Source: Nitrospirales bacterium (GTDB lineage: Bacteria > Nitrospirota > Nitrospiria > Nitrospirales > UBA8639). Taken from it: 64,000 nucleotides of DNA. The notes beneath the pieces were generated by a model. That model saw only the letters and a list, made by a program, of their open reading frames with translations. It made no database searches and was not told the DNA's origin. Position 1 is the stretch's first letter. Every line of letters begins with the position of its first letter. Positions 11,353 to 55,489 of this stretch are shown in pieces. The translations under genes and the position numbers were made by a program. The stretch is taken from the NCBI GenBank assembly GCA_029261295.1, contig JAJDBP010000024.1, positions 1 through 64,000 on the forward strand. The letters are read 5' to 3'.

Positions 11353-11395
11353 TGCGCCCGTAGCTCAGTTGGATAGAGCATCGGCCTTCTAAGCC
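11353..11395 (+). other. att site, outer left end of element A: 5' half of tRNA-Arg
   Basis: Identical over 43 bp to 38,663-38,705, i.e. one upstream base plus the 5' half of the intact tRNA-Arg down to the 3' strand of the anticodon stem. Beyond AAGCC the sequence departs from tRNA-Arg. Combined with the 3' half at 55,426-55,472 it would rebuild a complete tRNA-Arg, so this is the chromosomal left junction of the island. Confidence 0.9.
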
Positions 11396-11529: not shown

Positions 11530-11583
11530 AAATTCTCTCCGAAAATCATGATAGTTTTATAGAGATGGCATATTTTAAGTTGA

Positions 11584-11637
11584 GCAGCTGACTCTTAATC
11601 AGCGGGCCACAGGTTCGACCCCTGTACGACCCACCAT
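11584..11637 (+). pseudogene. tRNA-Lys(CTT) 3' fragment
   Basis: Contains the 3' strand of the D stem (GAGC), the full anticodon arm GCTGA-CTCTTAA-TCAGC (anticodon CTT), the T arm CAGGTTCGACCCCTG and ACGACCC-A-CCA. The acceptor 5' strand and most of the D arm are absent. It is most simply an attachment-site remnant from an element that used tRNA-Lys. Confidence 0.75.
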
Positions 11638-11912: not shown

Positions 11913-11976
11913 CCATCCCCTCTTAATCCGTTATCCTCCTACGACCGATTCAATACGCAGAACATTCCTGACTCGC
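11913..11976. repeat. Direct repeat flanking the 1458-aa gene, left copy
   Basis: About 64 bp, roughly four-fifths identical by eye to 16,839-16,903 (shared CATCCCCTCTTAATCC, then TTATC-TCCT, ACGACC, CAATAC, CATGAC-type blocks), in the same orientation. The pair brackets the nuclease-NTPase gene. Confidence 0.65.
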
Positions 11977-12224: not shown

Positions 12225-15200
12225 ATGGATTTGCACCAGAATAAATTCATTGAATTAAATCGTACCTTTTATGAGTTGTCGTCTAATTACGCACAATTTG
12301 CGGATACGGACGATCTCGATCTGAGAGAGGCTATAGGGTTGCGAGTCGGTGATACTCTTGGCTGGGATGTATTACTAAAAGAATATCGTGTAGTTTTACT
12401 TGCGGAAGCGGGTTCAGGAAAAACAGAGGAGATACGTGAAACAACCTTGAAGATTCGAGCCGAAGGAAAGCCCGCCTTCTTTATAAGATTAGAGCATATT
12501 TCAAATGGCCTTGAGGATGCATTTGAGGAGGGGAGTTTTGAGGAGTTTCAATCGTGGTTAAATTCTAATGATAATGGGTGGCTACTTCTCGATTCAGTAG
12601 ATGAAGCACGGCTGAGAGACCCCAAGGATTTTGAAAGAGCTATAAGAACGGTTGCTAAGCATCTGCAACCTGCTTTGCAGAGAGTTCACATGGTAATAAC
12701 TGGAAGAGTAAACGCATGGAGACCAAAGACAGATTTAGATCTATGTAACAAACAATTCCTATTTAAACCTCCAAATGAAAAAGAAACTAGTAACGCAGAA
12801 AACGAAGATGAGCTTTTTCCAGATGAAGAAAGATCAGATAGCGACAATAAGAAATCTGAAGCAAAAGATGAAAATAAGAATGCAGGTTTTAAAGTTTATT
12901 CGCTAACGAATTTGTCGTCAGACCAAGTAAAGACTTTTCTGGATGGAAAGGGTGTTAAAGATACTTCTATATTTTTAGATGATATTGAAAGACATGATGC
13001 TTGGTCTTTTACAACTCGTCCTCAAGACTTAGAAGAAATTATAGGATTTTGGAACAAAACAAAAAGAGTGGGAACACGCTTGGAGCTTATGGAACATAGC
13101 ATTGAGCGTAGATTAAATGAGCGAGACCAAGATAGAGCGGATTCAGAACAGATCACAGCCGAAAAAGCACGCCATGGCGCAAAATTAATTGCGGCCTCTT
13201 CTACATTTATGCACGAATCTACCATTAGAGTTCCTGATGGCAACAATAGCTCTAATGGAATAAATGCTAAGTCTATCCTGGCTGATTGGAATGATAAAGA
13301 ATGCCTCACTCTCCTAGGCCGTCCTATATTTGATGAAGCTATTTATGGTTCGGTCCGTTTTCATCATAGGTCAGTTAGAGAGTTCTTAACAGCAGAATGG
13401 CTATCCGATCTATTAGAACAAGAAGCTTCACGAAGAAACATTGAAGGTTTGTTCTTTCGCGAACAATATGGGATTCAAGTCGTCAATCCCTCCATGAAAC
13501 CAATTTTATCTTGGTTGGTCCTCAACGATGAGAAAATAAGAAATAAAGTAGTTAATATCGAGCCTGAAATTATTTTTAATGGTGGTGATCCCAGTAGACT
13601 TCCCCTTGAAACAAGACAGGAAATATTAAGATCAGTGTGCAGTAAAATGGCTTCGGATTCTTCTGCTCGTTCAGTCACAGACTATGCAGCTGTCCAACGG
13701 TTTGCCAACAGTGATATGGCGAAGGATATAAAGGCGCTTATTAGTGAGCATAAAGAAAATTCAGATCTTACCTATTTTCTCATGCGTATGATCTGGCAAG
13801 GCCGCATAAAACAAGCATTGTTGGAAGCTAAAAGTTTTGCTTTGGACAACCAAATTGAAAAATATACGCGTATTGCTGCCATTCGAGCGGTAAAAGAAGT
13901 TGGAAATAAACAGGACTTTGAGGAGATTTTGCAATCTTTCCTTTCCGAAGAAGACTTGATCGACAGAGGTTTAGTGTCAGAAGTGGTTGAGCGCTTAGAT
14001 CGATCTGAGTCCTCTGTTGACTGGATTTCTAAAGTACTCAACAAGACCGAAGATAAAAGGAAATATAGTACTGATGGTCTTAGTTACTCTTTAGTAAAAT
14101 TTGCAGAAGGGCTTGAGCCTGCAGTTGCAGCCAAATTTATTAAGCATATAGCCAAACTTCTTATTCAGGAGCCTGTAATTGAAAAAAGGCACTGTGAAAT
14201 CTCTCAGAGATTTGGATGGCTCATGAATTCTGGAGCAAAAGCTGTCGAAAATTTAATAAAATCTCGTGATTTAGCAGCTCTTAATTCAGATAGCCTTTCA
14301 ATACTTTCAAAAATACCCACTTTTAAGGAATATGCAGACTATGAACATAGGTCACTTACAAATGAAATATTTGAATTAGCTCGTGCTTGGCCTGATCTAA
14401 AACACTCCTTGTTCTGGAAAGACATAGAAGAGGCAAGGAAAAACCAGTATGCCAAAAAGGGCGAGAGGCTAATAAACTTTTGCCAAGCTTTTATGCTTAG
14501 GCAGTACTGGAGCTTTGAGGCCAATGATTTCGAACGTATTAAGGGTGATATTAAAAGGCGTGAACTTCTAGATGACAGATTGGTAGCCTTGTCTTTGGCG
14601 TTTCAAATATATAAAGAAAATGGTCGCCCTCCTAAATGGAGAGAGCAACTTAAAAAACTTGTTGAAAATGAAGCAGAGCTAAAGGAAAGGTTAGGGGAGT
14701 TATTGCGCCCACCAGCTCAATCCGATCAACAAAAAAAATGGAAACAACAAGAGGCTAGGTGGAAGCGCCAAGACAAAGCAAGAAAACAGAAACGAAATAT
14801 TTTCCATGCTGAATGGCTGGCATGGCTAGGTAAGAATGTTGAAAAATTACGAGATGCTACCTTATTAAGTGATTTATTAAAAAGCGGACGGTTTTTAAAT
14901 GCACAGCATTATTTGTTGGAACGAATGCGTAAGCTGGACGATAAATCAAATCATTGGACCCAAGGGAACTGGCGCGATTTAATAAGCCAGTATGGCAATG
15001 AAATAGCATCAGCCTTTCGAGATGGCCTAGTGATTTCTTGGAGGAGCTATAAGCCTGCACTTCGCTCCGAAAGAGACGATGATAGTGGAACTCCCCTTTG
15101 TGTAATTTTAGGATTGTCAGGATTGGAAATTGAGTCGAGAGAGACATGTGACTGGCCTAAGAAATTAACTGAAAAAGATGTCAAATTAGCATGCCGCTAT

Positions 15201-16601
15201 GCGTTCTGGGAGTTGAATGGTTTTCCAAATTGGTTTTCAAGGCTTCATGCTGCTTTTCCTAACATAGTAAGTTCCTTTATTTTGCAGGAAATTGAGTGGG
15301 AGTTGACATTCGAAGAGGGGGAAAAGGATAAGCACTATATTGTCAGTAAGGTTGGTTGGAACAGTCAGTGGTTATGGAATGATATAGCTCCGGAGCTTTT
15401 GAAAAAATTACACAAAGAACCATTAAGCGTTCAAAACTTAGGCCAGTTACTAAAAATAATACAAGGTAGTTCGACCGTCCCAAATCAAGATATTGCAAAA
15501 TTAGCGTCTCAAAAATGCAACGGAATTATTGCTCCAGATAAAATTGCATATTGGTTTGCTGCTTGGATAGGCGTAGAGCCCATGCCCGCAATAGAGAAGC
15601 TTTCTAGGCATTTAACAGGAATAATTGATAAGGAAGCAGCTAAAAATCTCGCAATGAATGTAATCGTTAATTTAGTTGGAGAAAGAAGAACGGAATCAAG
15701 TGCGCGTGATGCATACAAAACACCGGAACACCTTCAAAAGCTTTATCTTCTTATGCACGACCACATCAAGGTGGAGTCAGATATAAATAGAGCGGGGAAA
15801 GGGGTGTATTCGCCTGGTCTTCGTGATGACGCCCAAGATGCACGAAACGGGCTATTTTCAATTCTTAAAGATATTCCTGGTAAAGAATCTTTCTTAGCCT
15901 TAGTCGAACTGTCCAAAGCACATCCGGTAGAAACTTCTCGGTCATGGATGATGCACCATGCAAGAGAGCGAGCGGAAATGGATGCTGATATGGCTGCTTG
16001 GACGAGCGAAAAATTCTTGGATTTTAATAAATCTTTGGAAAGTACTCCTAGTACCCATCGGGAACTGTTTGATCTTGCTGTACAAAGGATTCTTGACTTG
16101 AAATATGACCTTGAAGAAGGGGATGAGAGCATTGCATCCATATTGGCAAATGTTACTCAAGAAACTGAAATCAGAAAATTTATAGCCGGATGGTGCAGAG
16201 ACAGATCGGCAGGGAGATACGTTGTGCCGCAGGAAGAGGAGCTTGCAGACGCAAAAAGACCTGATTGCCGCTTTCTTAGTTCACTATTTGATGCGCCGGT
16301 TCCTATGGAATTGAAATTGGTAGATAATTGGTCAGGGCCCTCTCTTTTTGAGCGCTTAGAAAACCAGCTATGTGGAGATTATTTGAGAGATGATCGCTCT
16401 AATCGAGGCGTGTTTTTATTAGTTTATCGTGGTGAAAAATCAGCTTGGAAAATTCCTAACGGTACTACTAGGGCAAAATTTTATCAGTTGCTTAAAGCAC
16501 TTCAAAATCGTTGGGTAGAAATATCCGACAACTACCCAAACATTGAGCAAATAAAGGTAATTGGTATTGATTTAACCAAGCGCACGGCGACTTCTGTTTA
16601 A
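12225..16601 (+). CDS. Large STAND-like NTPase with C-terminal PD-(D/E)XK-like nuclease domain
   Basis: 1458 aa, a single long gene. An N-terminal P-loop NTPase has Walker A AEAGSGKT (60-67), Walker B WLLLDSVDEARL (D123, D126, E127) and an arginine at VITGR (R161). A charged low-complexity insert (about 178-222) and a long alpha-helical region (about 400-1250) follow, reminiscent of the helical arrays of STAND/NLR-like proteins. The last about 140 residues hold RPDCRF (D1347), then MELK (E1362, K1364) and LENQLCGDYL (Q1381): the D...ExK...Q pattern of the PD-(D/E)XK nuclease fold. I infer a sensor-switch-nuclease protein, probably anti-phage, with the nuclease at the opposite end from Avs proteins. 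Codon use is AT-rich; direct repeats bracket the gene; no partner gene is adjacent. Confidence 0.7.
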   Translation: MDLHQNKFIELNRTFYELSSNYAQFADTDDLDLREAIGLRVGDTLGWDVLLKEYRVVLLAEAGSGKTEEIRETTLKIRAEGKPAFFIRLEHISNGLEDAFEEGSFEEFQSWLNSNDNGWLLLDSVDEARLRDPKDFERAIRTVAKHLQPALQRVHMVITGRVNAWRPKTDLDLCNKQFLFKPPNEKETSNAENEDELFPDEERSDSDNKKSEAKDENKNAGFKVYSLTNLSSDQVKTFLDGKGVKDTSIFLDDIERHDAWSFTTRPQDLEEIIGFWNKTKRVGTRLELMEHSIERRLNERDQDRADSEQITAEKARHGAKLIAASSTFMHESTIRVPDGNNSSNGINAKSILADWNDKECLTLLGRPIFDEAIYGSVRFHHRSVREFLTAEWLSDLLEQEASRRNIEGLFFREQYGIQVVNPSMKPILSWLVLNDEKIRNKVVNIEPEIIFNGGDPSRLPLETRQEILRSVCSKMASDSSARSVTDYAAVQRFANSDMAKDIKALISEHKENSDLTYFLMRMIWQGRIKQALLEAKSFALDNQIEKYTRIAAIRAVKEVGNKQDFEEILQSFLSEEDLIDRGLVSEVVERLDRSESSVDWISKVLNKTEDKRKYSTDGLSYSLVKFAEGLEPAVAAKFIKHIAKLLIQEPVIEKRHCEISQRFGWLMNSGAKAVENLIKSRDLAALNSDSLSILSKIPTFKEYADYEHRSLTNEIFELARAWPDLKHSLFWKDIEEARKNQYAKKGERLINFCQAFMLRQYWSFEANDFERIKGDIKRRELLDDRLVALSLAFQIYKENGRPPKWREQLKKLVENEAELKERLGELLRPPAQSDQQKKWKQQEARWKRQDKARKQKRNIFHAEWLAWLGKNVEKLRDATLLSDLLKSGRFLNAQHYLLERMRKLDDKSNHWTQGNWRDLISQYGNEIASAFRDGLVISWRSYKPALRSERDDDSGTPLCVILGLSGLEIESRETCDWPKKLTEKDVKLACRYAFWELNGFPNWFSRLHAAFPNIVSSFILQEIEWELTFEEGEKDKHYIVSKVGWNSQWLWNDIAPELLKKLHKEPLSVQNLGQLLKIIQGSSTVPNQDIAKLASQKCNGIIAPDKIAYWFAAWIGVEPMPAIEKLSRHLTGIIDKEAAKNLAMNVIVNLVGERRTESSARDAYKTPEHLQKLYLLMHDHIKVESDINRAGKGVYSPGLRDDAQDARNGLFSILKDIPGKESFLALVELSKAHPVETSRSWMMHHARERAEMDADMAAWTSEKFLDFNKSLESTPSTHRELFDLAVQRILDLKYDLEEGDESIASILANVTQETEIRKFIAGWCRDRSAGRYVVPQEEELADAKRPDCRFLSSLFDAPVPMELKLVDNWSGPSLFERLENQLCGDYLRDDRSNRGVFLLVYRGEKSAWKIPNGTTRAKFYQLLKALQNRWVEISDNYPNIEQIKVIGIDLTKRTATSV

Positions 16602-17457
16602 GAAGGATCTTTAGCGAACGAGGAAGTCCGTTTGTGAGCGATACCAGATCACAGCCCCACACTATGCTTCAGACACTTTAACGGCTCGTATTCTCATCAT
16701 TGAAGCCTGCCATGATCCGTCACCCTGATCATCATATTCTTACTTGGCTCGCAATCGGAATTGCTTAAACCCTGAAGCATCAATCTGAGAATTATTAAGG
16801 TTTTAGAGAAATGGGTGTTGAGTTAGGAGATGTGCGAGCATCCCCTCTTAATCCATTATCATCCTCACGACCCATCCAATACCCAGCACATCCATGACTC
16901 ATCCCACACTCACTTGTCGCAAGACCCTTCAACGGTTTGGTGAGAGTTATAATGAACTACAACAAAAAATAGCGGAAAACACTTCAAATGATAGGTTTTA
17001 AAAACTATTTTGCAGGCAACCGTATGTTAGCCAGAATTGAAGTCCTTGAAATGATCTAAAAAGCCCCGGTGAAGACATCGGCTGGAGACAAGAAATTTTT
17101 TCCTAAAAGTATCTGCTCTCTCGCTGTAATTTGAAGGCTATTAAATAAACCATTGTCGTTTCTTTAGAGTATTTACGGCGTACCCTATATTTAATTTTTC
17201 TTTTCTAGACAGAACTTTCCTCATTCCACTCCAATGAATAGAGTGTTTTTTGTCTGTTAAACCGTAGATGACAATCGGAGGAAAAATAAGGGTAATTAGG
17301 TAAGAAAAATAATTGAGTTTTTTTTAAAAAAAAAGAACGATGAGTTGAGCCCCGGAAGAGGACGGAAAATAATAAAGTGGGAGCAGGGGATACGGAATTC
17401 TTATTTTCATTTCGTCATCAAACGGTCTGACCACTAAATGAGGCAATGAAATGTTGT
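16602..17457. other. Intergenic region after the nuclease-NTPase gene
   Basis: Holds the right copy of the bracketing direct repeat (16,839-16,903). The remaining about 550 bp before the convergent NTPase pair is AT-rich, with no gene or RNA that I can support. Confidence 0.6.
16839..16903. repeat. Direct repeat flanking the 1458-aa gene, right copy
   Basis: Partner of 11,913-11,976 in the same orientation, about 4.9 kb away. Insertion or exchange of the single defence-like gene between these repeats is a natural reading. Confidence 0.65.
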
Positions 17458-19818
17458 TCAATAGAAAAGATCCAAGATGTCTTTAATTTTATCTAAAAAG
17501 GGGAGAAGTTTCCCCTGATGGGTTAAATAGCCAAAGAATACACAAAAAAATAAGATTGCTATTAAAAATAAGATTTTTTCGGGTTTTTTTGAGAAAATTT
17601 TAAAAATAAAAGCTTTAAGCTTTTCATGAAAATTTATAAAAATTTCTTTAAGTTGACTGCTAGTTGTCTTCCCGCAAATTTGAGAATTTCCTGAATCTAA
17701 AACATGTCGGATAATTGGAGAGACAAGAAAAGAATAGGCGGTCAGAAATTTTTTTTCCCACTCTAGGTATATATTGGGTTGATATTCTTTTTCGCAATAT
17801 ATAAGGCCAATGACCTCTTGCCCACATTGCATTTTTATTAAACTTCTTGTGCAGCTTGATTCATTATAAAAACTTTTTAATTTTAATTTTAACCATTCAA
17901 ATTGCCCCAATTGCACAGCATCTGATGAAATAACAACCCGATTTCCTGAAAATTGTGAAAATAAACTTTCTGTTTCATCAGGATAGATCTTAATGGCATT
18001 AAGGTTCTCCTGGTTTTCTTGCAAAACAACTTTTTCGAGATCATCTATTCTGTAAAGGATTCGGTAAAGAATATCTTGACAATTATTTGGAGAGTTGAAA
18101 ATATCTTCTTCCTTAATGACCATGTCCTTGTTTAGGAAAATTTTCATTTCGAGAGTGTTAACTTTATCTGCCATTAAGAAGAGAACGCATTTTTTATAAT
18201 TCCATGTTTTAAAAACTAGCAATGCCGTTAATGCAAGAATTAATAACTTATCATTTTCATGCTCAACAATTTCATTTAAAAAACCGCTAAATTGAAGAAA
18301 ATCCAACTCTTCTTCTTGAATTTTTTGCTTTGAAGAATTGCGCCTTTCTTTGTCAAACTTTGATTGGATTTCTTGATAACCTTTCTCGACAGCTGAAAAA
18401 AATGGTCGCAGCTCCTTTAATACGGGAAAAAATGTATTATTTTCTCCAATGATGAGCAGTTGGTTATTTCCCTTATTAGATAGGCTAAACCAGAATATTT
18501 TCTCATCTGACCCAGAATACATTCCTCCCTTAATTTTTCCTTGAACAAAATCGTATGAATCCTGAGATGTACTGTTTCCATAAAGAATATTCTCGTCGGA
18601 ATCACGTGAATAAATGGTGATATTTTTATATCCGTAAATGTAGGCAAAACCTTTTAAGCATAAGTCAAGGAATTTTGATTCATCTTCGGCTTGAAGGAAT
18701 AGGTTATGAAAGCTCTTTATGAAGTCGTCTCGATAAAAATGATTTTCAGCCAAATGGTCGTCGCTGTTGGGGAAATATCTTTCTGCATCCGCAAGCATTC
18801 CATGTATTAGGCAAAAGGCAAACAGTCTTCTTTTAGTAAAATACTGTGAAACAAACTCTTTGAAAATGAGGTTTGCAAAATCTATATTTTTCCCGATCCG
18901 TATCAATAGTCCTGATTGTTCCGTCTTTGAGTAAATGCCAGGCCAACCATTATATGTGGCTAATTTATCTTGCTGTAAATCATAGAAAGCAGAAAAAGCC
19001 GCTTTATTTGTTCTTAGGTCATTTGTTATGTATGAAAATATTTTAAAATTCTTGTCCTGGCCTAAATGATCGACAACCCATTTAATAAATTCAGGGATTT
19101 CCTTTTCTGGATTTTCCCCTGGAATTTTATTTAATAGAAGTTGTAATAATTGTGGGTGTCCATTGGTCCAATGAAATAAAATATTTGCATATTCATCCAG
19201 GGAGAAAATTCCCCCACCCCCTTGAGAATGAACAACATATTCTACATGTTCTCTAACTTCAGATTCGTGCAAGAAAGGAATTGCTAATTCGTGAATTCCT
19301 GGGGAAAGGGTAGTATCTGACTCCTGAAAATAGTCGCGGACTGGAATTGAACTTGAAATTATAAAAGAGAAGTGTTTTAGATCTTTAGATTGGAGGTTAG
19401 TACTTAGAGTACCCAAGCCTTGAAGTAATTGAATCGCGACCGGACCAAGGATCAGATCAATATTATCTAAAATTAGGTAAAGTTGAACATTTCCAGCCAG
19501 AATTTTAAATAATTCCAAATCCACTTCTAAGAATGAATTAAATTGTTCAACAGAATGCTGCTTGCTGGATATTAGATTGAAGATATCTACATATATGTGA
19601 ATCAGCAAATTCTCATCATCAGGGTCATATTTTGAGAGATCTATTTGTACGGGGGGGAATCTTTTATCACAATCCCTTAACTTAATATTTACCTTTTCTA
19701 GGAAATGTGTTTTTCCTGCATAAGGTGAGCCATAGACTAAATAGTTTTTTTTCCCACGATAGAGATCAAGGGCTATTCTTTCAGCTATAATTTGAATCAA
19801 ACAGTGACCCTCCCACAT
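17458..19818 (-). CDS. NTPase with GAF-like regions and C-terminal membrane helix (second gene of a pair)
   Basis: 786 aa. Order of parts: P-loop NTPase with Walker A GSPYAGKT (30-37) and Walker B LYLILDNID (D118, D121); a helical/winged-helix-like segment to about 330; two regions resembling GAF sensor folds (about 385-470, with YGYKNITIYSRDSDENILYG, and about 520-735); and a membrane helix at about 748-767 (ILFLIAILFFCVFFGYL) with a short amphipathic tail. The ATG overlaps the end of the upstream NTPase gene by 38 nt, so the two are translationally coupled. A membrane-acting effector triggered by the NTPase pair is a reasonable model, but it is inference; I recognise no described system with this exact layout. 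Confidence 0.7.
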   Translation of the reverse strand: MWEGHCLIQIIAERIALDLYRGKKNYLVYGSPYAGKTHFLEKVNIKLRDCDKRFPPVQIDLSKYDPDDENLLIHIYVDIFNLISSKQHSVEQFNSFLEVDLELFKILAGNVQLYLILDNIDLILGPVAIQLLQGLGTLSTNLQSKDLKHFSFIISSSIPVRDYFQESDTTLSPGIHELAIPFLHESEVREHVEYVVHSQGGGGIFSLDEYANILFHWTNGHPQLLQLLLNKIPGENPEKEIPEFIKWVVDHLGQDKNFKIFSYITNDLRTNKAAFSAFYDLQQDKLATYNGWPGIYSKTEQSGLLIRIGKNIDFANLIFKEFVSQYFTKRRLFAFCLIHGMLADAERYFPNSDDHLAENHFYRDDFIKSFHNLFLQAEDESKFLDLCLKGFAYIYGYKNITIYSRDSDENILYGNSTSQDSYDFVQGKIKGGMYSGSDEKIFWFSLSNKGNNQLLIIGENNTFFPVLKELRPFFSAVEKGYQEIQSKFDKERRNSSKQKIQEEELDFLQFSGFLNEIVEHENDKLLILALTALLVFKTWNYKKCVLFLMADKVNTLEMKIFLNKDMVIKEEDIFNSPNNCQDILYRILYRIDDLEKVVLQENQENLNAIKIYPDETESLFSQFSGNRVVISSDAVQLGQFEWLKLKLKSFYNESSCTRSLIKMQCGQEVIGLIYCEKEYQPNIYLEWEKKFLTAYSFLVSPIIRHVLDSGNSQICGKTTSSQLKEIFINFHEKLKAFIFKIFSKKPEKILFLIAILFFCVFFGYLTHQGKLLPFLDKIKDILDLFY

Positions 19819-21427
19819 ATGCCGATTTTGGAGTCACGTAATTCCAACCCTTTGCTTTTATGATTTCCTTAAGCCTTTTTATTCTTAAGGGGACACTCAA
19901 GTTTTCACATAACAACTTAGGCAAAAATGGATAAGTGAAAGAAATGGAATCTCCCTTTCTATTAAAAATTCCAGCTAACTGCAAGTCATGTAACTCCCTT
20001 GTGAAACGGCTTGGTCCAACTTTAATATCTTTCTGTAAATCTTCATATACAGTTTCTAGGGCGTTAATCCAAGGGCCAGATTCATGGCATTTCTGGGCGG
20101 CCATTAGGCTAATAAGTTGTTCAACTGTACTTGTATTTAAAATGAACACATCACTAATGTAATTAATTAAACTTGAAGAATCTTCAATTAATTGAACTTC
20201 TTCCTTTCCAACCTTTTTTCCAATTTTTTGGTTTTCTATTAAAGTGAGAATTTGATGACAATAAAATTGAATAAATCTTGGATGACAGCCAGTTTCTTCA
20301 AGAATATACGTTACAGCTTCTTCCTCAATGGCAATGCCCATATCGTTTAGTGGTTTATTTATTAAGTCCCTAGCCTTTTCTTGTTCTAGGCCGTGCAATA
20401 TTATTCTTTCAAAAAAATTAAAAGTTGCGAGATTTGTATCAATTGCCGCACGGTATAACCATTTATACCCAGTAGTGATAATTCTACAGAATCCTTCCGT
20501 ATGGGCATCTCGAAGCCTATCAAAAAAAGCCCAATTATGACTGTCGTATGCAGCTTTAAAAATATAATCTGTCTCATCAAAAAGTAAGATCATTGACCTG
20601 TTGGTTCGTTTGTACTCCCTACGTAAGAAGTCCTTAAATTTGTGTGGCGTCATCCTCGCGCTTTCTCTCGGATTAACCAATGAAGTAAATTGTTGAACCA
20701 ATACTTCATCGGTGTAAAGATTCATGCAGCTCATATAGTAAATGGCTGAGTCATTGTAGAGCTCTAGTTTTCTTTTCAGTTCATAAAGAAGGGATGTCTT
20801 TCCAAAACCCCTTCCGCTTACTACGGCAAAGTTTGAATCTGTCTTATTTGTTGCTCTGTCAATTTCTTGCTCTCTTCCAAAAAACATGTGATGCTGTATA
20901 GGGCCTTCGAATTTATAGGGTGAAATAATTCCTAATGGGATATTCTTTTTGTCAATGAATGAATGCAAAGGCTTGTTATTTACCTGTCGTCCTAAATCTA
21001 AAAGGTCTTCTTTTTGGAGTAATACGATTAATTCTTGAGATTTGGAAATGGCTTCTTTAAGCTTATGACTTTCTCCTAAATTGAATAGAAAATTCAATTG
21101 ACTTTTAGAATTGGTTTTTATCCCTGAGATTTTCCCTTTTTGGATAATATTTTCAACAAAGGTGACGAACTCAGATATGTTCTCCTTAACATGATCTTCA
21201 TCATTTATCGTACAAATTATGATTAAAGTATTTTGAGAAACATTAATCTTTAAATTTGACATGTCAATCAAGCATAACCTTGCTTTTTGGTATCCTTCTG
21301 CAGGGTAGATACCCCTCAATTTAAAATTTTGCCATTCACAATAGTCTTGCATTAGATATGTCGGTCTTTGAGAATCCCAAAAACCTTCGTCGAAAATCGC
21401 ACTAATTATTCGCTCACTAAAACCCAT
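19781..21427 (-). CDS. AAA/STAND-type NTPase (first gene of a pair)
   Basis: 548 aa from MGFSERII, chosen because GGGAG lies 9 nt upstream; a frame reaching 21,496 adds 23 residues without a ribosome site. Residues 1-165 form an unrecognised alpha/beta region. An NTPase domain follows, entered by the box MFFGREQEID (181-190), with Walker A SGRGFGKT (204-211) and Walker B MILLFDETDYI (D284, E285). The remainder looks like lid and winged-helix segments (LINYISDV...VGPSRFTRELHDLQLAGIF). This FGRE-P-loop layout resembles bacterial ORC/STAND-like ATPases. It overlaps the next gene, a second NTPase, by 38 nt. Confidence 0.72.
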   Translation of the reverse strand: MGFSERIISAIFDEGFWDSQRPTYLMQDYCEWQNFKLRGIYPAEGYQKARLCLIDMSNLKINVSQNTLIIICTINDEDHVKENISEFVTFVENIIQKGKISGIKTNSKSQLNFLFNLGESHKLKEAISKSQELIVLLQKEDLLDLGRQVNNKPLHSFIDKKNIPLGIISPYKFEGPIQHHMFFGREQEIDRATNKTDSNFAVVSGRGFGKTSLLYELKRKLELYNDSAIYYMSCMNLYTDEVLVQQFTSLVNPRESARMTPHKFKDFLRREYKRTNRSMILLFDETDYIFKAAYDSHNWAFFDRLRDAHTEGFCRIITTGYKWLYRAAIDTNLATFNFFERIILHGLEQEKARDLINKPLNDMGIAIEEEAVTYILEETGCHPRFIQFYCHQILTLIENQKIGKKVGKEEVQLIEDSSSLINYISDVFILNTSTVEQLISLMAAQKCHESGPWINALETVYEDLQKDIKVGPSRFTRELHDLQLAGIFNRKGDSISFTYPFLPKLLCENLSVPLRIKRLKEIIKAKGWNYVTPKSAYVGGSLFDSNYS

Positions 21428-22233
21428 GACATTAAACTCCCACCAAAAAAAACAAAATAGAACGAGTGTTCTTTGGTTCTTTCTTTGAATTGACATTGGC
21501 TTAGTAAGGACAACCCTCTAAGCTTAGAATGCTTTTATTTTTATCTTGACACCATATTAAAAATAACGAATAAAATCTAGTGAAATGTAGAAACATCTTC
21601 TCAATTAAATATTGGAAAAATTGTGTGGCGGGATATGCTTTTCAGGACCTTTCAAACAGCTGAAACCTTGAATAGGACATGGGGATTTGAGGAATACCAG
21701 GAGCAATGGCTAGTGCCGATGCTAGCATCATCTCGCCAACCCCAGCGGAGGTTGATGCTTATATCTTTAGACCAGTTCCATATATAGCTCTTGAGGTGAT
21801 GTTGGGGGCGAGCATCTCCAAATTGAAGCGCTTCACGGCGGCTAATGTCCATGAATACCTCCGATATTAGAGGATTAACTATGTACGAATATTACTGCAA
21901 GCTGGAGTTTTCTACTGAACTTAGAGTTTGAACACCTTAACCAACTGCTCCAAATAATTCAAAGACCGCTTGTCCCTGGCGAATTACTAATTTCCTTTCT
22001 CAGCGCGCTGTTTCGTCACGCTTGAATTTCTCTCCAACTCGCCGTATTCTCACCCGCGCTGAAACATCTATTCATGGTTTGCACGTATCTGGTTTCTCTT
22101 ACAAATAAACTTCTCAAGAATGATGGCATGAAGGCAGTGGTGGCCGAGAATTTACTGTTGAAGCAACAACTGCTCGTCCTCACACGCTCACGAAAACGGG
22201 GTGGGGCCCGAATCTGTCCATTTAATCAAACAT
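21428..22233. other. Intergenic region with IS remnant
   Basis: 21,500-21,970 has no supportable gene (a 66-codon frame on the minus strand at 21,652-21,852 has no ribosome site or recognisable content). The rest is the truncated IS at 21,971-22,217. Confidence 0.6.
21971..22217 (+). mobile_element. Truncated IS, left end only (relative of the IS at 55,490-56,686)
   Basis: Begins with TGTCCCTGGCGAATT, the same terminal repeat as the complete IS, and encodes the first about 45 residues of the same transposase (YLVSLTNKLLKN, GMKAVVAENLLLKQQLLVL, TRSRKR). Homology stops near CTGTCC at about 22,217; the other four-fifths are deleted. Confidence 0.8.
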
Positions 22234-23815: not shown

Positions 23816-24052
23816 ATGTCAAAAACTATTGTACTGCCCTCGGCAGGCGACCTGCAATCACGGACTCGCCACGAACAGCCAAAGGCCGAAGAGTCTCATG
23901 GATTTGAACGGGTGGACAGCACTATGAACCACATGATGACCAACTTAGCGCGCCATGGCGATATGCTACACGGGGACCTTCGTCCCCAGCGACGATCACG
24001 AACCATGCCGACTCAGAAGGAAAGGCGAGGTTATGACCACGATGACCTTTGA
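23816..24052 (+). CDS. Small basic protein in the replication operon
   Basis: 78 aa starting MSKTIVLPSAGDL with a GGAAAGGAA ribosome site 5-6 nt before the ATG. No domain is recognised; it is rich in His, Arg and Met. Its 3' end overlaps the primase start by 20 nt, consistent with an operon. It could be translated only to couple the primase. Confidence 0.45.
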   Translation: MSKTIVLPSAGDLQSRTRHEQPKAEESHGFERVDSTMNHMMTNLARHGDMLHGDLRPQRRSRTMPTQKERRGYDHDDL

Positions 24053-25871
24053 TCAAATCGCGACATTCGAGCGGGCCATGTCCGAGAACGGGTTAGCCTG
24101 CTCCGACCCCCTGATTTCCGACGGCCACATCCATCGCTATCACATGTCTGGGGACAAGGCTGGTGGCAAGAATGGCTGGTATGTTTTGTATGAGGGGACG
24201 AATCCCACCATCGTCTTTGGCTCTTGGAAGACGGACCAAACGATCAAGCAGTCTTTCAAGAATGACCAAGACCTTTCTCCGTATGAGCGACAACAATATC
24301 GAGAGCAAGTGGACCAGGCCCGAGAAGCGGCTGAACAAGAACGAAAAATGCTCCAACTGGAAGCTGCCACCCGTGCCCAAGCCATTTGGGAAGAATCCAC
24401 ACCTGCCCCAGACGATCATCCGTATCTGAGGCGGAAGCATATCCAACCCCATGGTGCCAGAGTCTCCGATGAGAAACTGGTCCTTCCCGTTTACGATGAA
24501 GCATGGGGCATCGCTACCTTGCAATCTATTGGAGAGGATGGGTCCAAGCTATTTCTTAGCGGCGGAGCCAAAACAGGAAACTGTTTCACCATCGGCGAAC
24601 CTGGCAGTACCGTCTATTTGGTGGAAGGCTTTGCGACAGGGGCTACGGTCCATGAAGTGACCGGCACCTATACTGTAGTGGCATTCGATTGCGGCAACTT
24701 GGTGCCGGTGGCTGTACGTTTGCGCCGTGAATATCCCGACGCCCAGATCATCATGGCCGCCGACAATGATAGTGAAAAGGAGGGCAACCCTGGCCTAACG
24801 AAAGCCAAGGAAGCTGCTGAAGCGGTGAAGGGGTCAGTGGTGTTCCCCACTTTTCAAGATCTGACGACCAATGGCAAGCCCCCAACGGACTTTAACGATC
24901 TGTTCGTACTTGAGGGTCTCGAAGTTATTCAGGCGCAATTGATACCACCTGAGCAGGCCCAGCTTACCTTGCGCGATGCCTTACTGGACTACCCATCGAT
25001 GCTGGCCTTGCAATTGCCAGAAAGAAAGCGAATTTACCCGTTCTTGCCTGAGGGCGGTATTGCCATGGCGTATGGCCCGCGTGGGGTCGGCAAAACATTT
25101 TTCAATCTGACTATGGCGGCAAGTACCGTGACAGGTACGCCCTTCTTTCGATGGAAAGCTCCACCACCAACTGGCGTTTTATATATCGATGGTGAAATGG
25201 ATTTGGATGAATTACGAACACGGATGACGGCCCTCTTACCGAAGCCGCCAAAAGCTCCCCTCATGTTTCTCACGAGTCATCAAGTCTACAACACCTTGCA
25301 ACGAGATTTGGTGCTAACGAACGCAGACGTACGAAAAGAAATCATCTCTATCTTGGATGATAACCCTGCACTGCGGGTCCTTATCCTCGATAATATCTCA
25401 TGCCTGTTTTCTGGCATTGATGAAGATCGGAAGACCGCATGGGAGTCGATCAGCACTTGGCTCATACGCCTTCGGCATCGAGGGATGACTGTCCTGCTTG
25501 TGCACCATGCAGGCAAGAGTGGCCAACAACGCGGCACCTCAGGACGTGAAGATTCATTAGATACGGTGATCCAACTCAATAAGCCAGCGGATTATAGCCA
25601 GCAGGAAGGCTGTCATTTTGAGATTGCGTTCACCAAGTGTCGTTCAGCTAAGGGCGAAGAGTTGGAGGCTCTAGACGCCAAGCTTGGCGAAAATGAGGGG
25701 CGCTTAGAATGGACCTGGCAGACGCTGGCAGTTTCCAAAGAAGAGCAAGCCAAGAAACTGTTCGATGAAGGTGTCACTTCTCCAACGGATATGGCGGAGG
25801 AATTAGGAATAACAAAAGGATATGCCTCCAAGCTCCTCCGTAAAATCAAAGCCACCAGTGGAGCGAACTAA
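24033..25871 (+). CDS. Toprim primase/RepA-type ATPase replication protein of element A
   Basis: 612 aa from MTTMTFDQ (GGCGAGG ribosome site; the frame is open further upstream to 23,955 without one). Residues about 195-300 are a Toprim fold (YLVEGFATGATVHE with E198; MAADND with D244 and D246). Residues about 320-540 are a RecA-like ATPase: Walker A GPRGVGKT (348-355), LYIDGEMDLDEL, LILDNISCLFSG and VLLVHHAGKSGQQRGTSGRED. The C-terminus has an HTH-like tail (DMAEELGITKGYASKLLRKI). This is the Toprim-plus-AAA_25 layout of plasmid and satellite replication proteins. An array of 22 GTTTCC/GGAAAC hexamers follows directly. Confidence 0.88.
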   Translation: MTTMTFDQIATFERAMSENGLACSDPLISDGHIHRYHMSGDKAGGKNGWYVLYEGTNPTIVFGSWKTDQTIKQSFKNDQDLSPYERQQYREQVDQAREAAEQERKMLQLEAATRAQAIWEESTPAPDDHPYLRRKHIQPHGARVSDEKLVLPVYDEAWGIATLQSIGEDGSKLFLSGGAKTGNCFTIGEPGSTVYLVEGFATGATVHEVTGTYTVVAFDCGNLVPVAVRLRREYPDAQIIMAADNDSEKEGNPGLTKAKEAAEAVKGSVVFPTFQDLTTNGKPPTDFNDLFVLEGLEVIQAQLIPPEQAQLTLRDALLDYPSMLALQLPERKRIYPFLPEGGIAMAYGPRGVGKTFFNLTMAASTVTGTPFFRWKAPPPTGVLYIDGEMDLDELRTRMTALLPKPPKAPLMFLTSHQVYNTLQRDLVLTNADVRKEIISILDDNPALRVLILDNISCLFSGIDEDRKTAWESISTWLIRLRHRGMTVLLVHHAGKSGQQRGTSGREDSLDTVIQLNKPADYSQQEGCHFEIAFTKCRSAKGEELEALDAKLGENEGRLEWTWQTLAVSKEEQAKKLFDEGVTSPTDMAEELGITKGYASKLLRKIKATSGAN

Positions 25872-30097: not shown

Positions 30098-30853
30098 TCA
30101 ATATCTCTGAAGCCAAGCTTTTAAATCATTAAAATCTTTTAGATCCAATTGGCTTTTCATTAATTCAGCTTCTTTTACTGCGTCCCCCGAAAAGAAGCTG
30201 GTTGTGACGATAACACTTTTCGAAGCCTGTCTTATCTGATGTACACCAAGCACTTCTCGTATAATCCCAACCCCAACCCTGTTGTCAGGGGCGTATCTCT
30301 TGCATTCGATGTGCGTGAGGTAACTGCATACGGCGTTTCTCACGTGAGCGATGATATCCCTGCCTCCATCGCGTGTTGTTTTTGTTAGCTCAACTTCAAA
30401 ACCAAGATCCTCAAGTATGCTCGCCACTAGCTCTTCGAATTTTCTCGGAGCAAGATCATATAGTTTCTCTGGGTTATCTTTGAAGTACTTCTTTATTTCA
30501 TCGTCGATGCTCGAAATTACGAGTTCAGACTCTGTCGAACTCAGGTCTGTTGGAGCCGCGTAGAAGGCTTCTTCAAATGTTCCGCGCTCCTCAATGGCGC
30601 TCATGACTTCTAGGATTTTATCTTCCGCGCCATTCTGGTCTGGGATGCTTACGGCGCCTTCAATATGCCTGTAAACGCCATCTTCATCTTTTGCTAGAAC
30701 AACGTAGGACCAATCTTTATCAAGTGTATCTCTAATTACCGTGCCGGCTATATCAATCTCAGAGCTTTGGAACCATGATCGCTCAGGAAAGATAGCAATC
30801 CTTTGGATTTTTAAATCATTGAATTCTTGCTCGGTAATTCGACGAATACTCAT
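30098..30853 (-). CDS. Mrr-like restriction endonuclease domain protein
   Basis: 251 aa. The C-terminal about 110 residues are an Mrr-type PD-(D/E)XK nuclease: PRKFEELVASILEDLGFEVELT, TRDGGRDIIAH (catalytic D), THIECKRYAPDNRVGVGIIREVLGV (ExK as E-C-K) and KSVIVTTSFFSGDAVKEA. The N-terminal half is a separate unrecognised domain (about 1-130) that may recognise the target. Mrr-like enzymes cut modified or foreign DNA. A second Mrr-like gene is in element B at 45,553. The gene is followed by an attC-like site, suggesting arrival as a cassette. Confidence 0.8.
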   Translation of the reverse strand: MSIRRITEQEFNDLKIQRIAIFPERSWFQSSEIDIAGTVIRDTLDKDWSYVVLAKDEDGVYRHIEGAVSIPDQNGAEDKILEVMSAIEERGTFEEAFYAAPTDLSSTESELVISSIDDEIKKYFKDNPEKLYDLAPRKFEELVASILEDLGFEVELTKTTRDGGRDIIAHVRNAVCSYLTHIECKRYAPDNRVGVGIIREVLGVHQIRQASKSVIVTTSFFSGDAVKEAELMKSQLDLKDFNDLKAWLQRY

Positions 30854-33968: not shown

Positions 33969-34736
33969 CTATTTGGTGTTCCGATCCATCCGAGTGAGAA
34001 TTTCCTCATGAAGCTTGGCAGCCATAAGCTCCACGTCATTATTGTAATAAACTCTTTCTTCTTTAACCTCCTCTTCATCGTCTACTTCATCTTCAATTGA
34101 AATTGGCTCGAATCCTCTTCTGGCGTAGGTCAGCTTTATCATTTTCTTTAAGTACCTCTTAACTCTATCTTTATCCCAAATCAATAAGAAAAGCAGAATG
34201 ATGAGTACCCAACCGCCCAGGAGCAAGGGCCAGGATAAATCTGCTAGTGAGATATTCCCAAGGCCCACACCAATTAAGATGCTAAGGAAGACAAGTAAGA
34301 AAGGAATACCATAGGGAATGGCCTTTACTGAGGAGGATGGAGGAGGCTCCGAAGAACAAAAACCCCTAGAACGGGTATCATCCTTAAAGTGCTTTCCTTC
34401 TACCAGTTCGCGAAAATCTATCCATTGAAATTCAGCCAGGTCTTCAGGAACTGGACACGAATCCAGAAGAACTGGCAGAAGATCTTTCCCCTGGGTGATG
34501 GCCCATTCATATTCGTTTTTGACTTCATCTGATTTCTCAGAATGGGTACACCAAAATACGACCAGGAGTTTGGCCGTTTCCAGTCCATCATGAATTTGTT
34601 TCCGCCATTTTTTGCCAGGAGTAATGCTATCGGCATCAAGAAACACCAGGTCATTTGTTGCTCGTAAAAGTTTGACAATGGGTGTGACGAGATGGCTATC
34701 TTGGTGGCTATAGGCAATGAAAATGGGGATTGGCAT
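33969..34736 (-). CDS. TIR-domain protein with two membrane helices
   Basis: 255 aa. N-terminal TIR fold (about 1-130): IFIAYSHQDS (box 1), VFLDADSITPGKKW, VVFWCTHSEKSDEVKNEYEWAI with E75 as the likely catalytic glutamate of NAD-consuming TIRs, and LLPVLLDS. Two helices follow (about 148-165 and 170-192: FLLVFLSILIGVGLG, LLLGGWVLIILLFLLIW), then a basic/acidic cytoplasmic tail (about 60 aa, DEVDDEEEVKEE). Bacterial TIR proteins act as NAD hydrolases or signal-nucleotide synthases in anti-phage immunity. The membrane anchor is unusual enough to note. Single gene in element A cargo. Confidence 0.8.
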   Translation of the reverse strand: MPIPIFIAYSHQDSHLVTPIVKLLRATNDLVFLDADSITPGKKWRKQIHDGLETAKLLVVFWCTHSEKSDEVKNEYEWAITQGKDLLPVLLDSCPVPEDLAEFQWIDFRELVEGKHFKDDTRSRGFCSSEPPPSSSVKAIPYGIPFLLVFLSILIGVGLGNISLADLSWPLLLGGWVLIILLFLLIWDKDRVKRYLKKMIKLTYARRGFEPISIEDEVDDEEEVKEERVYYNNDVELMAAKLHEEILTRMDRNTK

Positions 34737-37383: not shown

Positions 37384-37677
37384 ATGTCAACAATGACCAC
37401 CCTACTTATCCATTTACCAAAGACCCTCAAAGCCAAGCTCAACGCTCTCAAAGCCCAAGGCTACACGGCCAGTGGGTTTATCAGGGCGCTGTTGGAGCGG
37501 GAACTTAAAAAAAACGAACTAACAGAAGAGGAGGGTGAAGCATGGGGTATCACTATCAACGCAAACAACGTGATGGGACGAAAGGAGGAGTTTGGTGGGT
37601 TCAGTACTATTCAAATGGGAAGCGCATGCGTGAAAGTGCCCACACGAAGAAGGAGACCGAAGCTAAACGTTTTCTAA
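37384..37677 (+). CDS. Ribbon-helix-helix protein upstream of and overlapping the integrase (element A)
   Basis: 97 aa from MSTMTTLL (AAGGAA eight nt upstream). The core LPKTLKAKLNALKAQGYTAS, GFIRALLERELKK is nearly identical to the 50-aa element B gene at 40,225-40,377 (LPKSLKRKLNGLRAKGYTAS, GFIRALLEREL). After the core the frame continues 136 nt into the integrase gene; the element B protein stops after the core, so the extra tail may be read-through after loss of a stop. A role in controlling integration or excision is likely from its conserved position. Confidence 0.65.
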   Translation: MSTMTTLLIHLPKTLKAKLNALKAQGYTASGFIRALLERELKKNELTEEEGEAWGITINANNVMGRKEEFGGFSTIQMGSACVKVPTRRRRPKLNVF

Positions 37678-38633
37678 AAGAGCGAGAGGGGAGGGTGGTT
37701 ACTGGTCAAATCATTTTGCCCAGAGCTGACCGAATCCCCTATGAAGAGCTTGCCTCCGATCTGTGGCAATACTATGAGGCCACGGGGCAAAGGAATTTAA
37801 AGGAAGCCGCGACTCGTTTGAATCCCCTTCGTATTTTTTTTCGCGGTTATCGTGTGGCCAACATTTTCCCCACTGAAATAACTAAGTATGTTAATTGGAG
37901 ACATGAACAGGGACTATCTAATAGCACGATCAACCGTGAGCTTGCCGTGTTAACGAAAATGTTCAACCTGGGGTACGAGCGGGGAAAGGTCTTACGGCTG
38001 CCTGTTATTCATAAACTCAAAGAACCCCCTCCGCGGCAAGGGTTTTTTGAACGAGACCAATTTGTGGCTATTCGACGGCAATTACCTGAACACTTATGGG
38101 TGGCATTAACAATTGCATATACCTATGGGTGGCGGATGCAAAGCGAAGTCTTGACCTTAGAACGACGACACATTGATCTTGATACAGGTACTATTCGCCT
38201 GGACCCTGGCACGACCAAAAATGATGAGGGGCGTATCGTCTATCTGATTCCAGAACTGAAAGTTCAACTTGAAGTTCAATTAAGGCGTGTCGATGAATTA
38301 GGGTGGAAATTAGGACGTATTGTTCCTTTTCTATTTCCACATTTCACCGGGCGTTTTCAGGGTCAACGACTACATGATTTTCGGAAGGCTTGGAAAACCG
38401 CTTGCCGACGTGCAGGGTGTCCTGGATTCTTGAGGCATGATTTTCGACGAACCGCGGTTCGGAATATGGTGAATAAGGGGGTTGTGGAGCGTGTAGCCAT
38501 GAAGGTGACTGGGCACAAGACCCGCTCGGTCTTTGATCGGTATCACATTGTGAGTCCCGCAGACCTTCAAGATGTGGTTCAGAAGTTGATGGGCACAACA
38601 TTGGGCACAACAGCTTCCAAGGTCGTTGACTGA
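37542..38633 (+). CDS. Tyrosine recombinase (integrase) of element A
   Basis: 363 aa. Catalytic residues: R198 (TYGWRMQSEVL), K226 (TTKNDEGRIVYL), H299-DF-R302 (LRHDFRRTAVRNM), H325 (TGHKTRS) and Y334 (FDRYHIVS). N-terminal arm/SAM-like region at about 1-165. The start has a near-ideal GAGGAGGG site despite lying inside the RHH gene. The gene ends 30 bp before the intact tRNA-Arg, pointing at its 5' end; the element carries the tRNA 5' half at both ends. Integration into the 5' half rather than the usual 3' end of a tRNA is less common. Confidence 0.92.
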   Translation: MGYHYQRKQRDGTKGGVWWVQYYSNGKRMRESAHTKKETEAKRFLKEREGRVVTGQIILPRADRIPYEELASDLWQYYEATGQRNLKEAATRLNPLRIFFRGYRVANIFPTEITKYVNWRHEQGLSNSTINRELAVLTKMFNLGYERGKVLRLPVIHKLKEPPPRQGFFERDQFVAIRRQLPEHLWVALTIAYTYGWRMQSEVLTLERRHIDLDTGTIRLDPGTTKNDEGRIVYLIPELKVQLEVQLRRVDELGWKLGRIVPFLFPHFTGRFQGQRLHDFRKAWKTACRRAGCPGFLRHDFRRTAVRNMVNKGVVERVAMKVTGHKTRSVFDRYHIVSPADLQDVVQKLMGTTLGTTASKVVD

Positions 38634-38663
38634 AACTCTCTAACTATGCGATTTTCCTAGGCT

Positions 38664-38740
38664 GCGCCCGTAGCTCAGTTGGATAGAGCATCGGCCTTCT
38701 AAGCCGGTGGTCGCAGGTTCGATTCCTGCCGGGCGCGCCA
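38664..38740 (+). tRNA. tRNA-Arg(TCT), shared attachment site
   Basis: 77 nt with encoded CCA. Acceptor GCGCCCG pairs with CGGGCGC; D arm GCTCAGTTGGATAGAGC; anticodon arm CGGC-CTTCTAA-GCCG gives TCT (AGA codons); T arm CGCAGGTTCGATTCCTGC-type; discriminator G. The 5' half repeats at 11,353-11,395 and the 3' half at 55,426-55,468, so the present gene has its 5' half from element A and its 3' half from element B. Confidence 0.97.
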
Positions 38741-38770
38741 AATTTATCATTTCTTTCAAAGAGTTAAAAT

Positions 38771-39898
38771 TCATCTAGCCACTTCGCCCCCGGTTCTCTC
38801 TTCCCCAATCTCAGTTTTTGCTACAGTTCTCTCTGGCCTAGGGCTTTCCTCTCTGTGTTGTCCAAACCCTGATATTTTTTCCAATACCGTATGCAGGTGC
38901 GGTTGACTCAAATGTGCATACCGCTTAACCAAGGCGGTGGAGCTATGCCGAAGGCATGTGGCAATTTCCTGTTCTGTGGCGCCGCTCATAGCTAGGCGAC
39001 TGGCAAAGGTATGGCGCATGGTATGCCAATTCACATCAAAGAGATTGGCTTTCTGAACGGCCGGGACAAAAATTCGTTTATAAAAATTCTTGGGATCTAC
39101 TGGAGTTCCTTTGGTTTGGGAAGGAAAGACCCATTTGGAATCTCTCCAAGAGGTCCAGTTTTTCAATATACCTTTAGCTTCCTCATTGAGGTAGGCGTAT
39201 TGGCAATGCCCTGTTTTCGTGGCGGGGAGAGTGAGAATCCCTCTCTCCAGGTCAATATCAGTCCATTTAAGGCGGAATTGTTCGGTTTGTCTGAGGCCTG
39301 TCAAAATGGCAAAGCGCACCCAGGGAGCAAATGTTGGCGCGATGGATTCTAGTAATTGTTTTTCCTCTTCAAGACTTAAATACCGTAATCGGCCCTTGGA
39401 TACTTTAGGCATTTCAATTTGTGAAAAAGGATTCTGAACAAGCGATCGATCCCGGACGGCAAGATTAAGAATATGCCGCAAAAACTTCAAATAATGGAGA
39501 ACGGTTTGATTAGCTAAGCCTTTCTCTAATAATTCTCCTTTTACTGAATCAAGTAGAGCAGGGGTGATGTTAATCAAGCGGTGATTTGGCAATCTGTTCC
39601 TCCAGAATTTTTCGTAAATCCGATCGTTGCCTACTGTTCGTTTTTTATTGAACCGCATAAATTCTTCAATAGCCTCGTCTAGCCGTTTTCCACCACGATG
39701 TTGCAGGTTTTGTGGAAAAAACTGTCCCCGGCGTAAGTCGGTTTTTGCTTCTTCTCTAAATTGTCTAGCTTCGGTTTTCGTCGGAAATGATCCAAACCAG
39801 TGTACCTTCCCTTGGTGTTGCAACCGGGCATTCCATACTTGAGTGCCATCGGCGGTTTTTCGAGCTATTAAGCCTCGATCGTTAGATTTCTTAGGCAT
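38771..39898 (-). CDS. Tyrosine recombinase (integrase) of element B
   Basis: 375 aa. Catalytic residues: R203 (TGLRQTEQFRL), K228 (ATKTGHCQYAYL), H292-TM-R295 (NWHTMRHTFAS), H318 (LRHSSTALV) and Y327 (KRYAHL). An N-terminal AP2-like arm (VWNARLQHQGKVHWFGSFPTKTEA) and a SAM-like core-binding domain precede it. It reads toward the 3' end of tRNA-Arg from the opposite side to the element A integrase and belongs to a different subgroup by sequence. It begins 5 nt after the 105-aa gene and ends the RHH operon. The last codons contain a 23-bp sequence repeated near the other end of the element. Confidence 0.93.
   Translation of the reverse strand: MPKKSNDRGLIARKTADGTQVWNARLQHQGKVHWFGSFPTKTEARQFREEAKTDLRRGQFFPQNLQHRGGKRLDEAIEEFMRFNKKRTVGNDRIYEKFWRNRLPNHRLINITPALLDSVKGELLEKGLANQTVLHYLKFLRHILNLAVRDRSLVQNPFSQIEMPKVSKGRLRYLSLEEEKQLLESIAPTFAPWVRFAILTGLRQTEQFRLKWTDIDLERGILTLPATKTGHCQYAYLNEEAKGILKNWTSWRDSKWVFPSQTKGTPVDPKNFYKRIFVPAVQKANLFDVNWHTMRHTFASRLAMSGATEQEIATCLRHSSTALVKRYAHLSQPHLHTVLEKISGFGQHREESPRPERTVAKTEIGEERTGGEVAR
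38806..38828. repeat. 23-bp repeat near the left end of element B
   Basis: Exact copy (starting CAATCTCAG, ending TACAGTT) at 55,231-55,253. Lies 70 bp inside the left att core, within the integrase 3' end. Candidate arm-type integrase site or integrase duplication remnant. Confidence 0.75.
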
Positions 39899-39903
39899 GA
39901 TTG

Positions 39904-40221: not shown

Positions 40222-40224
40222 AAT

Positions 40225-55425: not shown

Positions 55426-55472
55426 GCCTTCTAAGCCGGTGGTCGCAGGTTCGATTCCTGCCGGGCGCACCA
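55426..55472 (+). other. att site, outer right end of element B: 3' half of tRNA-Arg
   Basis: 43 bp (55,426-55,468) identical to 38,694-38,736, followed by A-CCA instead of G-CCA. It is the displaced chromosomal 3' half; the original tRNA therefore had discriminator A. Confidence 0.92.
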
Positions 55473-55489
55473 TTTCATCCTCCCCCCCC

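What the first reader, a model, noticed from the sequence alone, without database searches (positions are those of the whole stretch)
12225..16601. Single-gene candidate defence protein: NTPase switch plus C-terminal nuclease
The 1458-aa protein has Walker A (60-67), Walker B (D123-E127), a long helical middle, and a C-terminal D1347...E1362-x-K1364...Q1381 pattern typical of PD-(D/E)XK nucleases. Avs-type STAND proteins put the effector at the N-terminus; here the order is reversed. The gene sits alone, bracketed by direct repeats, in an element full of other defence-like genes.
Basis: partly seen in the sequence, partly recalled or inferred. Interest (0 to 1): 0.75.

Follow-up and report, generated by a model that had tools for sequence, protein, structure and literature searches.

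The report
HyoA-type NACHT antiphage nuclease gene
The gene encodes one large protein of an already named bacterial antiphage family (HyoA): an immune-receptor-like ATP switch at the front and a DNA-cutting domain at the back, and its relatives suggest that the back end is an exchangeable weapon slot.

Summary
A 1458-aa ORF (12225-16601, +) has Walker A/B at the stated residues and a C-terminal D1347/E1362-x-K1364/Q1381 motif, near-invariant across about 75 homologues. Structure models support both readings. Residues 1-470 fold as a NACHT-helical-winged-helix module (NLRC4: Foldseek E 1.6e-9, VIA Z 17.6); residues 1225-1458 fold as a restriction-endonuclease domain (BglII, BamHI, Can2). The protein is not unknown: it passes NCBIfam's curated model for 'NACHT domain-containing antiphage protein HyoA' (1778 bits, cut-off 1200), so it is a new member of a known family. 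I found no HyoA paper in the library. New here is comparative evidence that the C-terminal nuclease is an exchangeable module: in three lineages it is missing from about the same breakpoint (a Rhizobium clade with an overlapping upstream Fic gene; a prophage version ending in a transmembrane helix; the closest relative, 63% identical, with an unrelated short tail). The gene is the leftmost cargo of a 27-kb tRNA-Arg island beside a second island, both carrying defence-like genes; empty sites exist in same-genus genomes. The bracketing 62-nt direct repeat is real. Phage defence is inferred from family name and context, not shown here.

The parts
12225..16601 (+). HyoA-family gene, 1458 aa
   Evidence: NCBIfam NF058534 1777.8 bits over 1430/1430 positions, cut-off 1200
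12357..12734 (+). NACHT nucleotide-binding core, about residues 45-170 (Walker A 60-67, Walker B 123-127)
   Evidence: Near-invariant residues; fold matches NLRC4 NACHT
12735..13634 (+). Rest of the NACHT module, residues 171-470: disordered linker about 180-222, then helical and winged-helix-like part with RFHHRS-REFLTAEW motif at 378-392
   Evidence: AlphaFold2 model pLDDT 87; VIA-align to NLRC4 spans model 3-470
13635..16019 (+). Long middle region, about residues 471-1265, presumed sensor/scaffold
   Evidence: Conserved in all variants including those without nuclease; fold not predicted except residues 1225 onward; role inferred
16047..16598 (+). C-terminal PD-(D/E)XK nuclease module, about residues 1275-1458 (D1347 codon 16263-16265, E1362 16308-16310, K1364 16314-16316, Q1381 16365-16367)
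   Evidence: Conservation; model pLDDT 89; restriction-endonuclease-fold rows in VIA-align
11914..11974 (+). Left copy of imperfect direct repeat bracketing the gene
16839..16900 (+). Right copy of imperfect direct repeat bracketing the gene (85% identical)
11353..11395 (+). 5' half of tRNA-Arg(TCT), left attachment copy of island 1
   Evidence: 43/43 identical to 38663-38705; empty site in relatives
38663..38705 (+). Right attachment copy of island 1, inside intact tRNA-Arg 38664-38740
37542..38633 (+). Tyrosine integrase of island 1
   Evidence: PF00589 E 5.5e-12, adjacent to the right attachment copy
55426..55484 (+). 3' half remnant of tRNA-Arg, right end of island 2; chromosome resumes by about 60 kb
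   Evidence: BLAST of the empty-site loci L146 and L147

Best explanation
It is a HyoA-family, NLR-like single-protein immune sensor with its effector at the C-terminus. Proposed working: the N-terminal NACHT module holds the protein off in its resting nucleotide state; a phage-derived (or other invader) trigger is bound by the long middle region; nucleotide exchange lets subunits oligomerise; this brings the C-terminal PD-(D/E)XK domains together in an active arrangement, which cut DNA, stopping the phage and probably killing or arresting the cell. Shown here: the two folds, conservation of the ATPase and nuclease residues, family membership, mobile defence-island context, and modularity of the C-terminus. 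Inferred: the trigger, oligomerisation, DNA as substrate, and abortive outcome.
For: NCBIfam HyoA equivalog hit over the full length. N-terminal model matches active NLRC4 (Foldseek E 1.6e-9, VIA Z 17.6, 368 residues, rmsd 6.7) and Avs4 (E 8.8e-6). C-terminal model: the listed VIA rows are overwhelmingly restriction-endonuclease-fold proteins, including BglII Z 8.6, BamHI 8.4, Can2 8.4, McrC 7.2, Card1 7.0 and the Avs4 chain 5.7. Catalytic residues near-invariant. Nuclease module absent in three lineages from about the same breakpoint, once with an overlapping Fic gene. Homologues sit on plasmids, prophages and islands, with Gabija, AbiE, QatD, SIR2, type III RM or SoFic-like neighbours.
Against: No activity, trigger or oligomer was tested. 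Foldseek alone gave no hit at E <= 0.001 for the C-terminal model, and VIA Z values of 8 are only moderate. No Pfam model reaches its cut-off. The middle region was not modelled.
Confidence: 0.75

Rival explanations
1. The C-terminal endonuclease fold is not the killer effector but a nucleic-acid-sensing or dimerisation domain; the output is something else.
For: Inactive restriction-endonuclease folds (for example the Pfam family NACHT-associated inactive Restriction Endonuclease 1) are known in NACHT systems; that model even hits another protein in this window. The nuclease is absent from some relatives, so it is not needed for whatever the rest does.
Against: All metal-binding and catalytic positions are near-invariant, which an inactive fold would not preserve. 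Where the module is missing, one clade gains a Fic partner and one prophage version a transmembrane helix at the same place, which is effector-like replacement.
Confidence: 0.12
2. It acts mainly against plasmids or other mobile elements, or as an inter-element competition or addiction system, not against phages.
For: Many homologues are carried by plasmids, prophages and satellites, which benefit from excluding competitors.
Against: NCBI names the family antiphage; the basis of that name could not be read. The two roles do not exclude each other.
Confidence: 0.15
3. An ATP-dependent, McrBC-like restriction enzyme in which the NTPase drives DNA translocation and the nuclease cuts specific or modified DNA.
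For: McrC and restriction enzymes are among the C-terminal fold matches.
Against: The NTPase folds as an NLR-type NACHT module with winged helix, a switch fold; no DNA-recognition domain and no methyltransferase partner is fused or conserved beside it.
Confidence: 0.06

Closest known systems
HyoA (NCBIfam NF058534, NACHT domain-containing antiphage protein)
   Same: Full-length match 1-1430/1430 at 1778 bits, cut-off 1200; same order, NACHT first and nuclease last
   Different: Nothing seen that sets this copy apart; it is a further member. Relatives without the nuclease also pass the cut-off, so the name does not guarantee a nuclease.
EruA (NCBIfam NF058535)
   Same: Distant sequence similarity from residue 221 to 1418, including the nuclease region
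   Different: 184 bits against a cut-off of 1000, so not a member
Avs (AVAST) proteins, e.g. Avs4
   Same: STAND-class NTPase plus PD-(D/E)XK nuclease in one large protein; both halves have Avs4 among their fold matches
   Different: In Avs4 the nuclease is N-terminal (aligned chain residues 2-154); here it is C-terminal. No PADLOC hit.
bNACHT proteins, e.g. bNACHT25 (PMC12169576)
   Same: Bacterial NACHT protein with a PD-(D/E)XK DNase effector required for defence in bNACHT25
   Different: bNACHT25 has N-terminal DNase and C-terminal sensor; here the order is reversed
NLRC4 (animal NLR)
   Same: NACHT, helical and winged-helix arrangement; best structural match of residues 1-470
   Different: Low identity (about 12%), no CARD, no leucine-rich repeats seen; nuclease fused instead

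Membership tests
HyoA (NCBIfam NF058534) | Score over the curated whole-protein cut-off (1200 bits) | tested here: met
   1777.8 bits
HyoA (NCBIfam NF058534) | Full-length coverage, ATPase to C-terminus | tested here: met
   Profile positions 1-1430 of 1430
HyoA (NCBIfam NF058534) | Protects cells against phage | not testable with these tools
   Needs an experiment; no HyoA paper found
NACHT NTPase | P-loop and Walker B with acidic residues | tested here: met
   GSGKT 63-67 and LLLDSVDE 120-127, near-invariant
NACHT NTPase | NACHT-helical-winged-helix fold | tested here: met
   NLRC4 Foldseek E 1.6e-9, VIA Z 17.6; NOD2 and NLRP3 follow
NACHT NTPase | Pfam NACHT (PF05729) over gathering score | tested here: inconclusive
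   This protein E 0.039, 14.2 bits against 26.7; 27 of 54 relatives match at E <= 0.1, best 8.3e-8
PD-(D/E)XK nuclease | D...(D/E)-x-K catalytic residues | tested here: met
   D1347, E1362, K1364
PD-(D/E)XK nuclease | Restriction-endonuclease core fold | tested here: met
   BglII 8.6, BamHI 8.4, Can2 8.4 lead a list of mostly such enzymes; Foldseek alone weak
Avs (AVAST) | N-terminal effector, central STAND NTPase, C-terminal sensor | tested here: not met
   P-loop already at residue 60, nuclease at 1275-1458
EruA (NCBIfam NF058535) | Score over the curated cut-off (1000 bits) | tested here: not met
   183.9 bits

The most novel reading that the evidence does not exclude
HyoA is an NLR-type sensor with an inverted layout whose C-terminus is an exchangeable effector slot: nuclease in most members, replaced by a separate, co-encoded Fic enzyme in a Rhizobium clade, by a transmembrane segment in a prophage version, and by an unidentified tail in the closest relative. 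One sensor would thus drive different killing outputs.
Probability: 0.6. Interest if true: 0.6.

Novelty: new member of a known kind. Interest (0 to 1): 0.45.

Why it matters
The protein itself adds a member to a named antiphage family. Its layout is the mirror image of Avs and of bNACHT25-type proteins, so it asks how a NACHT switch can license an effector at the far end of the chain. The natural effector exchanges offer a direct test: graft one output onto another sensor body. They also warn that genomes annotated 'HyoA' may carry no nuclease.

Tried and rejected
Sequence searches of the single protein against Pfam, PADLOC and PDB gave nothing. Profile searches of both halves against PDB sequences gave only chance hits, as did Pfam for the C-terminus. 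A single-sequence scan of genome contigs found no relative; the alignment scan found 292. Papers: no text on HyoA or EruA as antiphage proteins; 'EruA' papers concern an unrelated E. coli regulator. The short tail of L058 has no significant relative in plasmids (best E 2, SEC-C proteins) or in 20 genomes of its order, so it is left unexplained. mad3 hits among flanking genes were discounted because they also appear in the E. coli control. Promoter and terminator scans were uninformative. I considered a housekeeping role and rejected it from patchy distribution (1 of 396 genomes of the phylum over cut-off) and mobile context. The 62-nt repeat was considered as a sign of cassette insertion; with two copies only, this remains unproved.

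Full report
What is there. The ORF at 12225-16601 (+) encodes 1458 residues. In an alignment of 79 long homologues these positions are close to invariant: D123, D126 and E127 in 79/79, K66 in 78/78, D1347 in 74/74, E1362 and K1364 in 73/74, Q1381 in 72/72.

What family. Pfam, PADLOC and PDB sequence searches are blank for the single protein, but NCBIfam's curated equivalog model 'NACHT domain-containing antiphage protein HyoA' matches the whole protein at 1777.8 bits (cut-off 1200); the related model EruA is far below its cut-off. The library I could search holds no paper that describes HyoA, so the experimental basis of the name could not be read. Within the window's own phylum a copy over the cut-off is rare (1 of 396 genomes, itself), but homologues of 30-63% identity occur in many Pseudomonadota, Desulfobacterota, Chlorobiota and others, on plasmids, prophages and chromosomes. 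In E. coli a close relative of the Klebsiella plasmid copy is in 3 of 5,426 complete genomes.

Structure. AlphaFold2 models built on 54-55 homologues are good: residues 1-470 pLDDT 87, residues 1225-1458 pLDDT 89. The N-terminal model matches NLRC4 (Foldseek E 1.6e-9; VIA Z 17.6 over 368 residues, rmsd 6.7), then NOD2, NLRP3 and other animal NLRs, and Avs4. The P-loop begins at residue 60, so there is no room for an N-terminal effector. The C-terminal model shows the strand-strand-helix-strand core, and VIA-align lists mostly restriction-endonuclease-fold proteins: BglII, BamHI, Can2, OkrAI, PaqCI, McrC, Card1, Shedu, HamA, and the Avs4 chain. Foldseek on its own was weak for this part, so the assignment rests on the VIA list together with the invariant motif.

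The C-terminus looks like an exchangeable module. Four Rhizobium sequences (plasmids in L044 and L048, genomes in L126 and L128) end at about window residue 1270, lack the nuclease altogether, and have a Fic-family gene immediately upstream, overlapping by 4 nt. Pfam Fic matches that partner at E 1.7e-14, PADLOC's SoFic at 4e-24, and it contains HPFLDGNGR (sequence). A P2-like prophage sequence, L139, continues instead into a linker and a strongly hydrophobic segment near the C-terminus (mean hydropathy 2.84 over 19 residues; no other sequence examined exceeds 1.6). L058, the closest relative (about 63% identical throughout, sister to this protein with support 1.0), ends in an unrelated 30-residue tail. 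All diverge from the nuclease form within about 20 residues of each other. In the tree of the common part they fall in three separate places, so at least three losses or exchanges are implied. L058 is one MAG contig and L139 one record; the Fic type is the best supported, with a further genome of the same length type (G807). L126, L128 and L058 still exceed the HyoA cut-off.

Context. A 43-nt exact repeat, the 5' half of tRNA-Arg(TCT), lies at 11353-11395 and again within the intact tRNA-Arg at 38664-38740; a tyrosine integrase (37542-38633) adjoins the second copy. In two same-genus genomes tRNA-Pro is followed 95 nt later by one intact tRNA-Arg and then by the gene found in the window at about 60 kb; the original tRNA-Arg 3' half is at 55426-55484 in the window. 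So two islands lie in tandem in one tRNA-Arg: island 1 (about 11396-38705), whose leftmost cargo is this gene, and island 2 (about 38706-55470) with its own integrase and a type III restriction-modification locus. The tight 62-nt direct repeat around the gene suggests acquisition or exchange as a unit but does not prove it. Elsewhere, 115 flanking ORFs of relatives include strong PADLOC hits to Gabija GajA, AbiE, QatD, SoFic and others; 36 genes of an ordinary E. coli stretch gave only mad3 and a GlgB-type hit. The E. coli copy lies between a helicase-containing operon and a SIR2 gene, with type I restriction nearby.

Mechanism. The best reading is a NACHT switch that senses an invader through the middle region and licenses the C-terminal nuclease by oligomerisation. 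Fold, conservation, context and modularity are shown; trigger, oligomer, substrate and outcome are inferred by analogy with Avs4 and with bNACHT25, where nuclease-dead mutants lose defence and DNA is degraded (PMC12169576). The order of parts is opposite to both.

Verdict. The protein is a new member of an already named family, so novelty of the gene is low; the effector-exchange pattern is the part worth pursuing.

Noticed in passing
window 11353-11395, 38663-38705, 55426-55484: Two tandem islands in one tRNA-Arg(TCT): 43-nt attachment repeat, two integrases (37542-38633, 38774-39898), displaced 3' half at the far end, empty site in two same-genus genomes (L146, L147).
   Followed up: yes
window 11579-11635: 3' fragment resembling tRNA-Lys(CTT), just inside island 1; possibly the scar of another integration.
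   Followed up: no
window 17458-21496 (-): Two overlapping low-GC genes: a 571-aa nSTAND1 protein (E 2e-13) and a 786-aa protein with no family; looks like a second STAND-type defence pair.
   Followed up: no
window 30098-30853, 33969-34736, 40735-45518, 45526-46425, 47913-48908: Further defence-like genes: Mrr-type nuclease, TIR/ThsB-like protein, type III methyltransferase and restriction enzyme, Mrr-like PDC-S02, PDC-S19.
   Followed up: partly
window 23955-25871 and 51782-53788: One primase-helicase-like gene in each island (Toprim with AAA_25; Zn-ribbon primase with AAA_25), as in phage satellites or integrative elements.
   Followed up: no
L126:4727-9630, L044:4727-9630, L048:3742-8627: Rhizobium two-gene version: Fic gene overlapping a nuclease-less HyoA.
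   Followed up: yes
L058:6001-9918: Closest relative ends in LEPNIYGMGINLRAALRYLKGKL instead of the nuclease; the element has an integrase, a small regulator and a tRNA-Pro end. The tail is unexplained.
   Followed up: partly
L139:5992-9918: HyoA body in a P2-like prophage with a C-terminal transmembrane segment in place of the nuclease.
   Followed up: partly
L144 (G231:C3): In another same-genus genome the tRNA-Pro side of this locus is interrupted: tRNA-Pro/tRNA-Arg sequence recurs about 20 kb further on, so the site looks like an insertion hot spot.
   Followed up: no
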